A stretch of DNA of 59,719 nucleotides from a virus. Positions 1,262 to 50,620 of this stretch are shown here, in pieces; the stretch's first letter is position 1, and every line of letters begins with the position of its first letter. The notes beneath the pieces were generated by a model, which saw only the letters and a program-made list of their open reading frames with translations, was not told where the DNA came from and did no database searches. The DNA lies in IMG/VR virus record IMGVR_UViG_3300025000_000111, positions 1 to 59,719 of that record. The stretch is one strand, 5' to 3'. The position numbers were made by a program, and so were the translations under genes.

Positions 1262-1297
1262 ATTAAATAGTTTTAGTACAACAAAATAAAATAGTAA

Positions 1298-1556
1298 AAA
1301 TCTTCTGACCGTATGCCTACGGAATAACAACTTAGTTAGCCCACCGTATTCACGGTACTTCTCTATGTTCCTGTTATCTATCCACAAACAACGACCCTTG
1401 CAAGGGGTCTTATACAATCGTGATATAACACCCTCACTGGGTCATATTAGCAATCTTTCGGATTGCATCCTCTTTCACGCTATATACTCGATACATACTT
1501 GTAACCAGAGAACTACCTTAGTTCCCATGTATTTGTTTGCTTCAATCAGAAGATTT
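1298..1556 (-). ncRNA. Candidate multi-hairpin structured RNA (leader or independent ncRNA)
   Basis: The minus-strand RNA from the promoter at 1572-1602 is closed by a perfect 11-bp stem (1546-1556 with 1298-1308). Inside are six hairpins: GAACT/AGTTC (1510-1524), GCAATC/GATTGC (1450-1466), ACCC/GGGT (1430-1442), a 7-bp stem around GACCC/GGGTC (1393-1409), ACCGT/ACGGT (1343-1356), and CCGTA/TACGG (1309-1322), the last directly stacked on the closing stem. There is no good ORF. It could be a regulatory leader of the gene at 779-1261 or a separate noncoding RNA. I do not recognise it as tRNA, tmRNA, RNase P RNA or a group I or II intron. Confidence 0.6.
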
Positions 1557-1571
1557 CAAAGAACTATGATG

Positions 1572-1602
1572 CAAATATACAACATTAAAATGCGTTTGTC
1601 AA
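1572..1602 (-). promoter_or_regulatory. Early promoter, Bacteroidota type
   Basis: On the minus strand, TTGACAA begins at 1602 and TATATTTG at 1579, 23 bases apart, matching the -33 TTG / -7 TAnnTTTG consensus of the Bacteroidota primary sigma factor. It would start transcription near 1565, just before the structured RNA. Confidence 0.85.
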
Positions 1603-2090: not shown

Positions 2091-2101
2091 AATAAAAAGT
2101 G

Positions 2102-2217
2102 CTGCTACCAAAAGGTAAAGGCTGTCCGATTTGTCCGATATGGACTTTGGCAATACCTAATGGTGGCAGACTTATTTTATTTTTTAGTTAATATTATCAA
2201 ACAGCAAAACAAAAATA
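2102..2217 (-). promoter_or_regulatory. Promoter plus pseudoknot leader of the HNH endonuclease gene
   Basis: TATTTTTG (2217-2210) is a -7 element. Four bases later the RNA begins a 10-bp stem P1 (2205-2196 with 2130-2121, two G-U pairs). P1 encloses a GTCC/GGAC hairpin (2145-2133). A second pairing of 7 of 8 bases (2169-2162 with 2109-2102) crosses P1, making a pseudoknot whose 3' strand ends 11 bases before the start codon. The strings ATTGCCAAAG, AATCGGA and AGCCTTT are shared with the leader at 41485-41580, with compensating changes in the stems. The likely role is translational control of the endonuclease. Confidence 0.65.
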
Positions 2218-2253
2218 CTATATACTGATGCTTATTAAAATAATGGATAATAA

Positions 2254-21913: not shown

Positions 21914-21957
21914 CAAAAATAGATAAACAACAAGCCAATTAAAATCATATATAATTA
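21914..21957 (-). promoter_or_regulatory. Possible late promoter
   Basis: Minus-strand TATTTTTG (21921-21914) with an AT-rich block AATTAAAATCATATATAATT upstream at 21938-21957; nearly the same block lies beside the element at 30641. It fits the late promoter pattern seen more clearly at 33619 and 45344. Confidence 0.45.
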
Positions 21958-30640: not shown

Positions 30641-30683
30641 CAAAAATAAACAATGAATAACTAATTAAAAATCATATACAATT
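30641..30683 (-). promoter_or_regulatory. Possible late promoter
   Basis: Minus-strand TATTTTTG (30648-30641), preceded on its upstream side by an AT-rich block at 30663-30683 nearly identical to that at 21938-21957. It lies directly before the membrane protein gene at 30343-30636. Confidence 0.45.
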
Positions 30684-33618: not shown

Positions 33619-33663
33619 CAAAAATAGGATATATGTGGAACAGATAAAATAATTATAGATTTT
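33619..33663 (-). promoter_or_regulatory. Late promoter with AT-rich upstream box
   Basis: Minus-strand TATTTTTG (33626-33619) is the -7 element. No TTG lies 23 bases upstream; instead a 17-base AT block (33663-33647, AAATAATTATAGATTTT on the plus strand) starts 20 bases away. The same block and spacing recur at 40682, 45344 and 50577. Confidence 0.65.
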
Positions 33664-41435: not shown

Positions 41436-41455
41436 ATTTTTAATGATTATTTTAA

Positions 41456-41580
41456 TCGGGTGTGACATTAAGTATTTTTGTCATGCTCATTCGATAACTA
41501 TGAAAATATTAAATCCCACTCTTAACACATTGCCAAAGCACATCGTGTGCAATCGGATGAGCCTTTGTGTTTCGGGTGGG
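41456..41580 (+). promoter_or_regulatory. Promoter and pseudoknot leader of the second HNH gene
   Basis: TCGGGTGTG (41456-41464) precedes a TATTTTTG -7 box (41473-41480). Four bases later stem P1 begins (41485-41495 with 41552-41562; 11 bp, one G-U). P1 encloses a GCACA/TGTGC hairpin (41538-41550). A crossing helix of 7 bp (41515-41521 with 41574-41580) makes a pseudoknot ending 9 bases before the ATG. ATTGCCAAAG, AATCGGA and AGCCTTT are shared with the leader at 2102-2217, while stems differ by compensating changes. Confidence 0.68.
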
Positions 41581-41589
41581 TAACTTTTT

Positions 41590-42063
41590 ATGAAAGAAAT
41601 ACCGTTAACTCAAGGCTATGTGGCTTTAATAGATGATGAAGACTATGAACTTGTTAGTAAATACAAGTGGCATGTTAGGGTTTGTAACACTAATAAATAC
41701 GCTAACTCAAATGTTCAAAAGAAAAGAACAACAATGAGTATGCATCGTTTAATTATGGGATTTCCCGTTGGTTTGCAAATAGACCACTGTGACCACAACG
41801 GATTGAACAATCAGAAAAGTAATTTACGAGTTTGTACTAAGGATGAGAACAACAGAAATAGAATTATAGGTAAAAATAAATCAAGTAAATACAAGGGAGT
41901 ATGTTGGCATAAAGCAACTAAAAAATGGATGTCTAGAATAAAATTAAATAAAAAATATATTCATCTTGGTTTATTTACATTTGAAACAGAAGCTGCATTA
42001 GCGTACAACAACAAGGCTACTGAATTATTTGGTGAATTTGCGTATATAAACGAAATATTATGA
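41590..42063 (+). CDS. HNH homing endonuclease with AP2 domain
   Basis: The 157-aa protein has HRLIMGFPVG, LQIDHCDHNGLNNQKSNLR (HNH core) and the AP2 DNA-binding part SSKYKGVCWHKATKKWMSRI to GEFAYINE. It aligns throughout with the enzyme at 1611-2090. The gene has its own promoter and leader inside cassette 4 and overlaps the following gene by 4 bases. Likely a mobile homing element. Confidence 0.9.
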   Translation: MKEIPLTQGYVALIDDEDYELVSKYKWHVRVCNTNKYANSNVQKKRTTMSMHRLIMGFPVGLQIDHCDHNGLNNQKSNLRVCTKDENNRNRIIGKNKSSKYKGVCWHKATKKWMSRIKLNKKYIHLGLFTFETEAALAYNNKATELFGEFAYINEIL

Positions 42064-43556: not shown

Positions 43557-45324
43557 TATCCATATCTTTTAATTCCATTGCTTCTTGTTCTTTCAGTATC
43601 TTATTAACCTTCTTGTCAATCAATACTTTCTGCTGTTCCCTTGTCAGTTCGTAGAAGTTTATCCCACCACTCATCTCGTTTTCAATTTCATCAAATATCC
43701 AAGAGTAGTTCAGGTAAAGTACCTTGATTCTGTCAGGGGTGTAATTGGTTGTCATGGCATACATTATTTCCTTCTCTGATTTACCATTGAAAGGGAAGAA
43801 TGATTTCTGTGTCAGATACCGTGCTTTACCGATGGGGTCTTCTGAGTAAATGATTCCAGCTATATCATTATTGATACCGTCTTTTATGAAACTATCTCCA
43901 TCACTGTTGTTAATTGTTTCCAAGTCAGCGTACAAGTCTGATAACGACTTCATCTTAAAGTCTTTACTGAATGTGTAGAATGCTATCAGGTCTTTCCTCA
44001 TATCTGTGATGGATGCAATGGATTCAACCCCAAACTTCCATTTACGTGAGTATGCGGTAGCCATATTGTACAGACTGTCATACACGTTCTGTAAGTCAAT
44101 GTTCTTGCCTGTTGCAGTTTCTGCTACCTGTTTCTTACTGAACAACTCGGAGTTGTAAAGTGCTTCCTTACACCTGATGGTAAGTTCCTGAATATATCTA
44201 TCCTGCCACTGAACCAGTTCTACCGATGGTGAAACATATTTTACAATGTTGTCAAGGTTAAGGAAGTCATCCTTATCCTTTGGCATCCTCAGGTAGATAA
44301 TATCCTGTGCCGTCTTATGTGTTTCGTATCCTGTTCCATGACATTTACTGCATGAATTACCATCCGGCATAAAACCGTTGTTACAGCCTGTATGACTGCA
44401 TCTGTTGGCATATTGTATCTTCTGTGGGAATACATGCAAAGCAGCAGTTAAGTCCATCTCAGAGTTAGCCTTAACCATCTTTAACAGCAATGGAACGGCA
44501 TCATCAATAACGGAAATCATTGTCTTACCCTCTGTGTAAATATCTCTGTTGAATCCAACCATGAATGCCGGAACAAAACCTAAACTATGGGTATAAGTGT
44601 TAATAGTGAAATAACCTTTCTTGGTCTTTACAACAGTTTCACCATCTACATCTGCAAAAGGAATGTTGTAAGGATTGTTACCAGTAGGGTCGGGTTTCAG
44701 TTCTGTCAAGACTGTTGTATCTTCCTTGCCGTAGATAGTGTATCTCTGTTTAGAGTTTCCACCAAATTCATCCACAACATCATGTAGTGTGACAAGGAAT
44801 TGTAAATCATTCTTTATGTCTTTTGAGTAGTGGATAGCCTCTTCTGAGGATACCTCAAACGGATATGGTGTTGCTCTTTCCTTAGTAACATCGTAATCTT
44901 TCCATTCAAACACGCACCAACTGTTTGGGTCTGAACCATTTAAGTCAATCCACCGTTGGTTGAACCAGTTGTCAAACGAAGCATCACCCCAGAAAACATC
45001 CAGCTTATCTTCCAGTTCCTTTGACCTTTGATTGACTGCATCATCCTTGTAAGCCACCACCCTGTTAACAGAATTGCTTCTTGGCACTTTATACAATGGC
45101 TTCATTAGGTTTCTTGATACTGAGGATGTTATATGCTGTGTAATCCTTCTACGTTGTTTAAACATCTCATCGCTTTCATGCCTGTCAAACTTCCGTAACA
45201 GGTATTCCATATCTTCACCAGTGATAAGTGCGGTGTACAGCCGTTTAAGGTCGCACACTCTGGCATAATATTTATGTCTAATATCTTCGTTGATTACTGT
45301 GAGTAATGTTTTAAGCATATCCAT
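43447..45324 (-). CDS. Portal protein with an internal zinc-finger-like insert
   Basis: The 625-aa protein is placed between terminase and minor head genes and has a portal-like helical and beta mixture (KQVAETATGKNIDLQNVYDS near the stem). Around residues 308-335 an insert CSHTGCNNGF, NSCSKCHGTGYE carries a C-x4-C and a DnaJ-like CxxCxGxG motif, a possible zinc ribbon. The C-terminal tail is Asp/Gly/Arg-rich and overlaps the minor head gene start. Confidence 0.82.
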   Translation of the reverse strand: MDMLKTLLTVINEDIRHKYYARVCDLKRLYTALITGEDMEYLLRKFDRHESDEMFKQRRRITQHITSSVSRNLMKPLYKVPRSNSVNRVVAYKDDAVNQRSKELEDKLDVFWGDASFDNWFNQRWIDLNGSDPNSWCVFEWKDYDVTKERATPYPFEVSSEEAIHYSKDIKNDLQFLVTLHDVVDEFGGNSKQRYTIYGKEDTTVLTELKPDPTGNNPYNIPFADVDGETVVKTKKGYFTINTYTHSLGFVPAFMVGFNRDIYTEGKTMISVIDDAVPLLLKMVKANSEMDLTAALHVFPQKIQYANRCSHTGCNNGFMPDGNSCSKCHGTGYETHKTAQDIIYLRMPKDKDDFLNLDNIVKYVSPSVELVQWQDRYIQELTIRCKEALYNSELFSKKQVAETATGKNIDLQNVYDSLYNMATAYSRKWKFGVESIASITDMRKDLIAFYTFSKDFKMKSLSDLYADLETINNSDGDSFIKDGINNDIAGIIYSEDPIGKARYLTQKSFFPFNGKSEKEIMYAMTTNYTPDRIKVLYLNYSWIFDEIENEMSGGINFYELTREQQKVLIDKKVNKILKEQEAMELKDMDNADTDSDQGTGSRTGQGDRRNTGRTGRQANSVPEED

Positions 45325-45343: not shown

Positions 45344-45387
45344 CAAAAATAGGATATATCTGTTACAGATAAAATAATTATAGATTT
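45344..45387 (-). promoter_or_regulatory. Late promoter with AT-rich upstream box
   Basis: Minus-strand TATTTTTG (45351-45344) and the AT box (45371-45387) upstream, within a 44-base stretch nearly identical to 33619-33663. It drives the portal gene. A plus-strand promoter begins four bases beyond. Confidence 0.7.
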
Positions 45388-50576: not shown

Positions 50577-50620
50577 CAAAAATAGGTAATAACCAGAAAT
50601 ATAAAAATAATTATAGGTTT
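50577..50620 (-). promoter_or_regulatory. Late promoter with AT-rich upstream box
   Basis: Minus-strand TATTTTTG (50584-50577) with AT box AAATAATTATAGG (50606-50620 plus-strand text) 21 bases upstream. It drives the glycan block. A plus-strand promoter starts five bases beyond. Confidence 0.65.

What the first reader, a model, noticed from the sequence alone, without database searches (positions are those of the whole stretch)
2102..2217. Covarying pseudoknot leader shared by two HNH endonuclease genes
The leaders at 2102-2217 (minus) and 41485-41580 (plus) keep ATTGCCAAAG, AATCGGA and AGCCTTT while both helices and the hairpin change with compensation: P1 GCTGTTTGAT/ATCGGACAGC versus GCTCATTCGAT/ATCGGATGAGC, hairpin GTCC/GGAC versus GCACA/TGTGC, and a crossing helix in each that ends 9-11 bases before the start codon. 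P1 begins exactly four bases after the -7 box in both, so it would form from the 5' end of the RNA. A shared leader with covariation beside free-standing homing endonucleases suggests a cis-regulatory RNA that limits or times nuclease synthesis, or an RNA that travels with the mobile element. I cannot match it to a known riboswitch or ribozyme class.
Basis: partly seen in the sequence, partly recalled or inferred. Interest (0 to 1): 0.82.

Follow-up and report, generated by a model that had tools for sequence, protein, structure and literature searches.

The report
Pseudoknot RNA leader before phage nucleases
Two selfish DNA-cutting genes in one unclassified phage each start their messenger RNA with the same knotted RNA fold, kept by matched mutations, which probably throttles how much nuclease is made; no third copy was found anywhere searched.

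Summary
Of 27 pairs, 98% of cells pair, and 9 pairs change on both sides; sliding the strands gives 0-1. Only 1 of 3000 column permutations reached the covariation of an unrestricted helix search. Fourfold-degenerate sites of the two genes agree at only 10 of 25, so the invariant ATTGCCAAAG, AATCGGA and AGCCTTT look selected.

No Rfam family matches. No further homologue was found in IMG/VR pattern scans, about 850 Bacteroidota genomes screened by covariance model, or about 150 related HNH loci. The element is known from two copies in one phage.

Best explanation: a cis-acting leader that limits translation of the nuclease. A shared U-rich tract at the start codon can pair with the A-rich linker, possibly in competition with P1. 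This is inferred. Closest precedent: T4-type homing-endonuclease mRNA hairpins. In passing: int-alpA RNAs precede other phages' HNH genes, and a 270-nt structured RNA lies beside gene A.

The parts
2210..2241 (-). promoter of leader A, ATTTTAAT-N15-GTATTTTTG (phage promoter class)
   Evidence: exact match in A and B, other copies before other phage genes
2196..2205 (-). leader A, P1 5' strand GCTGTTTGAT, at the predicted RNA 5' end
   Evidence: pairs with 2121-2130
2170..2195 (-). leader A, A-rich linker (L1), can pair with the U-rich tract at the start codon
   Evidence: folds
2161..2169 (-). leader A, P2 5' strand CTGCCACCA
2154..2158 (-). leader A, P2b 5' strand AGGTA
   Evidence: three compensatory pairs against B
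2145..2154 (-). leader A, invariant ATTGCCAAAG (mostly unpaired)
2133..2145 (-). leader A, hairpin P3 GTCC-ATATC-GGAC
   Evidence: two compensatory pairs against B
2121..2130 (-). leader A, P1 3' strand ATCGGACAGC (crossing helix)
2113..2117 (-). leader A, P2b 3' strand TACCT
2102..2110 (-). leader A, P2 3' strand TGGTAGCAG
2091..2100 (-). leader A, invariant ACUUUUUAU(U) tract touching the start codon
1611..2090 (-). HNH endonuclease A (159 aa)
   Evidence: PF13392 27 bits over cut-off
41449..41480 (+). promoter of leader B
41485..41495 (+). leader B, P1 5' strand GCTCATTCGAT
41496..41514 (+). leader B, A-rich linker (L1) with ATGAAAA
   Evidence: folds
41515..41521 (+). leader B, P2 5' strand CCCACTC
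41525..41529 (+). leader B, P2b 5' strand ACACA
41529..41538 (+). leader B, invariant ATTGCCAAAG
41538..41550 (+). leader B, hairpin P3 GCACA-TCG-TGTGC
41552..41562 (+). leader B, P1 3' strand ATCGGATGAGC
41566..41570 (+). leader B, P2b 3' strand TGTGT
41574..41580 (+). leader B, P2 3' strand GGGTGGG
41583..41591 (+). leader B, invariant ACUUUUUAU tract running into the start codon
41590..42063 (+). HNH-AP2 endonuclease B (157 aa)
   Evidence: PF13392 31.5 bits, AP2 31.5 bits

Best explanation
A roughly 105-115 nt cis-acting mRNA leader belonging to a promoter-leader-nuclease cassette. Shown by comparison: transcription from a phage promoter class would place P1 at or one base from the RNA 5' end; P2, P2b and P3 form a nested stem, and P1 pairs the 5' end into the 3' side of that stem's internal loop, making an H-type pseudoknot with an embedded hairpin; the unpaired ATTGCCAAAG is under selection. 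Inferred: the structure limits initiation at the nuclease start codon. The stem ends only 9-11 nt before AUG, and the shared U-rich tract at the start codon can pair with the A-rich linker, extending the stem over the start site. In B only about 4 nt of linker would remain between P1 and that extension, so P1 and start-site closure should exclude each other, giving a possible two-state switch. Whether a ligand, a protein (for instance the nuclease itself) or only folding kinetics sets the balance is unknown.
For: Covariation and controls; near-saturated synonymous divergence of the genes (10/25 fourfold sites equal) against a fully invariant 10-nt unpaired block; the conserved AATCGGA falls in different reading frames in A and B and an upstream ATG exists only in B, which argues against a conserved leader peptide; other genes with the same promoter class that were examined (45324, 33599, 21887, 30636) have leaders of about 25 nt or less with weak folding, the two nuclease leaders have 105-115 nt and a paired -20..-1 region (mean unpaired probability 0.14 and 0.36 against 0.61-0.95); free-energy minima pair the linker with the start-codon region in both; T4-like phages control homing endonucleases through mRNA structure at the start site (PMC2988022).
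Against: Only two sequences, in one genome; no homologue in any collection searched, so covariation cannot be tested with R-scape-like power. P1 is supported mostly by invariant pairs. Start-site pairing uses A-U pairs in an A+T-rich sequence, a weak basis (duplex about -1.1 kcal/mol). The accessibility figures come from nested folding that ignores the pseudoknot. No expression data; promoter and start of transcription are inferred.
Confidence: 0.55

Rival explanations
1. Ligand- or protein-sensing element: the conserved unpaired ATTGCCAAAG and the P1/P2 pseudoknot form a binding pocket (riboswitch-like, or bound by the nuclease for autoregulation), rather than a merely inhibitory fold.
For: Conservation of unpaired bases exceeds what a blocking stem needs; compact pseudoknot with embedded hairpin; I-TevI autoregulates, though on DNA (PMC2988022).
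Against: No Rfam class; present at only two genes of one phage; nothing ties it to a metabolite.
Confidence: 0.2
2. mRNA 5'-end stabiliser: P1 buries the RNA 5' end and the pseudoknot protects the message from decay, raising nuclease yield.
For: P1 starts at or next to the predicted 5' end in both copies.
Against: Does not explain the conserved loop or the U-rich start region; start site not mapped.
Confidence: 0.12
3. RNA or DNA element of the mobile cassette, acting in homing or as nuclease operator rather than in expression.
For: Promoter, leader and ORF recur as a unit; the downstream flanks are unrelated; I-TevI binds an operator next to its ORF (PMC2988022).
Against: Compensatory changes point to RNA pairing, not a DNA site; no empty site or target was identified.
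Confidence: 0.08
4. Plain homology: two duplicated cassettes share leftover sequence, and the structure is coincidental.
For: Genes are homologous; leader identity (66/106) is similar to that of the ORF.
Against: 9 double-sided pair changes against 0-1 in slid controls; 1 in 3000 permutations.
Confidence: 0.05

Closest known systems
mRNA hairpins that control T-even homing endonucleases (I-TevI/II/III, segB, mobE; seg43(25) of Aeromonas phage 25)
   Same: Structured RNA directly upstream of a phage homing-endonuclease start codon; as in seg43(25), the stable stem ends just upstream of the start region instead of covering a Shine-Dalgarno (PMC2988022).
   Different: Those are simple hairpins that form on read-through transcripts and are bypassed by a late promoter inside them; here the promoter puts the whole structure into its own transcript, the fold is a pseudoknot with an invariant unpaired block, and no Shine-Dalgarno is seen.
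int-alpA RNA (RF02996)
   Same: Found here about 30 nt upstream of HNH endonuclease genes in other phages; outer stem, conserved (C)GAAAAG before a hairpin, CCU before the outer 3' strand, loosely like GCCAAAG-hairpin and GCCUUU here.
   Different: int-alpA has two hairpins in a three-way junction and no P1 pseudoknot; neither leader matches its model even at E 10.
Pseudoknotted riboswitches and HDV-like ribozymes
   Same: From general knowledge: P1-P2-hairpin-P1'-P2' strand order is shared with the HDV fold; short pseudoknots are common in riboswitches.
   Different: No Rfam match; P1 begins at the transcript start, leaving nothing to cleave 5' of it; long linker and no P4 hairpin.

Membership tests
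Any Rfam 15 family | covariance-model match at gathering score | tested here: not met
   0 matches in the window; only chance-level scores at E<=10 on each leader
int-alpA RNA (RF02996) | model match | tested here: not met
   none, while HNH-linked loci L325 and L143 score 45.7 and 44.5 bits
int-alpA RNA (RF02996) | three-way junction with two hairpins | tested here: not met
   leaders have one hairpin (P3) plus a pseudoknot
T4-type translational control of homing endonucleases | gene is an HNH or GIY-YIG endonuclease of a phage | tested here: met
   PF13392 over cut-off in both; virus record
T4-type translational control of homing endonucleases | RNA structure sequesters the start region | tested here: inconclusive
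   minimum-energy folds pair the U-rich tract at AUG with the linker in both, by A-U pairs only
T4-type translational control of homing endonucleases | a promoter inside the hairpin gives transcripts that lack it | tested here: not met
   the conserved promoter lies upstream of the whole leader
T4-type translational control of homing endonucleases | structure reduces translation | not testable with these tools
   needs reporter assays
Group I intron or other HNH-associated ribozyme | intron core or ribozyme model match | tested here: not met
   no Rfam match
Free-standing homing endonuclease | demonstrated homing or an empty allele | not tested
   no close relative of this phage was found in which to look for an empty site

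The most novel reading that the evidence does not exclude
A new class of two-state pseudoknot switch dedicated to phage homing endonucleases: the RNA 5' end (P1) and the start codon compete for the same leader, so the nuclease is made only when P1 forms, possibly on binding of a ligand or protein to the invariant AUUGCCAAAG; together with int-alpA leaders elsewhere this would make elaborate leader RNAs a recurrent feature of HNH-AP2 nucleases.
Probability: 0.2. Interest if true: 0.7.

Novelty: new variant of a known kind. Interest (0 to 1): 0.45.

Why it matters
Selfish nucleases must limit the damage they do to the phage that carries them. Control by mRNA hairpins is known from T4-like phages; a covarying pseudoknot that moves as one cassette with promoter and nuclease would show a more elaborate, independently evolved solution, and the conserved unpaired block offers a direct target for binding tests. 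The int-alpA observation, if it holds in a wider survey, gives a described but unexplained RNA family a new genomic context.

Tried and rejected
IMG/VR scans for the conserved core: TTGCCAAAG-N6-26-AATCGGA (stopped at 120 rows), ATTGCCAAAG-N8-20-ATCGGA-N0-5-AGCC (6 hits, none leader-like), ATTGCCAAAG-N17-27-AGCCTTT (114) and GCCAAAG-N9-16-AATCGGA-N0-3-AGCC (39); a structural filter for P3 plus P1 returned no convincing new leader beside the window's own two. Genome contigs pattern scan (stopped at 118 rows) gave none with a full P1. HNH relatives from IMG/VR show no such leader by eye or by models R1, R2. Model R2 over 395 Bacteroidota and two orders (231 and 226 genomes, partly overlapping) gave one 24.8-bit hit, antisense to a coding gene and at chance level; the tool notes that stricter filters applied and that an empty answer is weak. 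An exact-looking core in phage MT836056 lies just 5' of a terminator-like hairpin, not before a nuclease, and is taken as chance. Conserved leader peptide: rejected, since AATCGGA changes frame and the upstream ATG is in B only. Close phage relatives through the terminase: none in IMG/VR, about 29-42% identity in named phages, the best-covered being Flavobacterium phages. A first, cruder permutation test gave P=0.012 because it could not count P2, which has one mismatch in A.

Full report
Setting. The window is a 59,719-base virus record of IMG/VR. Its terminase has only distant named relatives, with Flavobacterium phages the best covered, and the promoters carry a TAnnTTTG-type box; a Bacteroidota host is therefore inferred, not shown. 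Two HNH endonuclease genes, A (1611-2090 minus, 159 aa) and B (41590-42063 plus, 157 aa), are 54% identical and match HNH_3; B also matches AP2 just under its cut-off.

Observation. Both leaders were read directly. After correcting the alignment by one base in A (the extra A of A's AAATCGGA was removed to keep register), four helices can be written: P1 (11 columns), P2 (7), P2b (5) and P3 (4). Counting pairs gives 98.1% of cells paired and nine pairs changed on both sides; when the 3' strands are slid by one to three columns, 31-38% of cells pair and zero or one pair changes on both sides. Because the structure was chosen with these sequences in view, I also permuted the variable columns 3000 times and let the script find the best helices each time: one permutation reached the real score. 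P1 does not enter that score, since it has a single compensatory pair and one matched inserted pair; its support is the near-perfect 10-11 bp complementarity in both copies.

Selection. Between the two genes only 10 of 25 shared fourfold-degenerate sites agree, so neutral sites are close to saturated, while the ten bases ATTGCCAAAG, most of which are unpaired in the model, are identical. The conserved AATCGGA is shifted by one base relative to the upstream open frame in A and B, and an upstream ATG is present only in B; protein-level conservation does not explain the leader.

Surroundings. The promoter ATTTTAAT-N15-GTATTTTTG is a phage promoter class with 11 near matches in the window against 1.6 expected; genes at 45324, 33599, 21887 and 30636 that follow it have leaders of about 25 nt or less with weak folding, unlike the two nuclease genes. 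Promoter, leader and ORF are shared between A and B; downstream flanks are not similar beyond chance, and the upstream 300 bases score slightly above shuffles (33 against a maximum of 29), probably through common A+T-rich and promoter-adjacent sequence. The unit is thus a promoter-leader-nuclease cassette.

Homologues. None was found. Patterns on IMG/VR and genome contigs, about 150 HNH loci from three protein scans, covariance models on those loci and on Bacteroidota genomes all gave chance matches only.

Mechanism. With a structure ending 9-11 nt upstream of AUG and no Shine-Dalgarno, I consider a limit on translation initiation most likely. Free-energy minima of both leaders, taken through the start codon, pair the A-rich linker with the invariant ACUUUUUAU at the start. 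In B that pairing would leave about four linker bases to span P1, P2b and P2, so P1 formation and start-site closure should compete. P1 duplex energies are -11.9 and -15.2 kcal/mol; the nested core compatible with P1 and without linker pairing gives -16.9 and -21.2, against -29.1 and -25.2 for unrestricted nested folds. Allowing a pseudoknot penalty, which I did not compute, the two states are of comparable stability. This is inference; start-site pairing in an A+T-rich leader is weak evidence by itself.

Comparison. T4-like phages sequester homing-endonuclease start sites in mRNA hairpins, and seg43(25) has a stable hairpin immediately upstream of its ribosome binding site, of untested role (PMC2988022). 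The present element works like these in setting and presumed effect, but differs in fold and in that the promoter precedes the whole structure. It does not belong to int-alpA RNA or any Rfam family.

Verdict. A real, selected RNA structure, new as a sequence family, documented from two copies in one phage; probably a cis-regulator of nuclease synthesis. Interest is moderate because the sample is two and function is untested.

Noticed in passing
window 1285-1575, minus strand (just downstream of HNH gene A): A noncoding stretch of about 270-280 nt with its own promoter-like sequence (TGTATATTTG), GTTCTTTGAAA near its 5' end, a 13-15 bp closing stem (AAATCTTCTGATT/GGTCAGAAGATTT) and several hairpins; folding z-score about -3.6, no Rfam match. 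It may be an undescribed large phage RNA.
   Followed up: partly
L559 1500-1870: A Bacteroidota genome carries a similar start (TATATTTGTACCATCGTTCTTTGAAATA) followed by about 350 nt without an obvious gene, with hairpin-like repeats, before an ORF. GTTCTTTGAAA resembles an rRNA-type antitermination box from memory; not tested.
   Followed up: partly
L325 514-581, L143 1222-1287, L331 503-573, L332 521-584; probably L126 1415-1468 and L394 about 285-340: int-alpA RNA (RF02996) or sequences like it lie about 30-35 nt upstream of HNH endonuclease genes in several IMG/VR phages; two matches exceed the gathering score, L331 and L332 fall just below it, L126 and L394 are by descriptor or motif only.
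   Followed up: partly
window 2210-2241 -, 21914-21945 -, 30641-30672 -, 33619-33650 -, 41449-41480 +, 45344-45375 -, 50577-50608 -: A recurrent phage promoter class, ATTTTA(A/T)(T/C)-N15-(C/G)TATTTTTG, before several genes of the phage.
   Followed up: partly
window 41499-41582, plus strand: Leader B contains a short open frame (ATGAAAATATTA... ending TAA 8 bases before the nuclease ATG) that leader A lacks.
   Followed up: no
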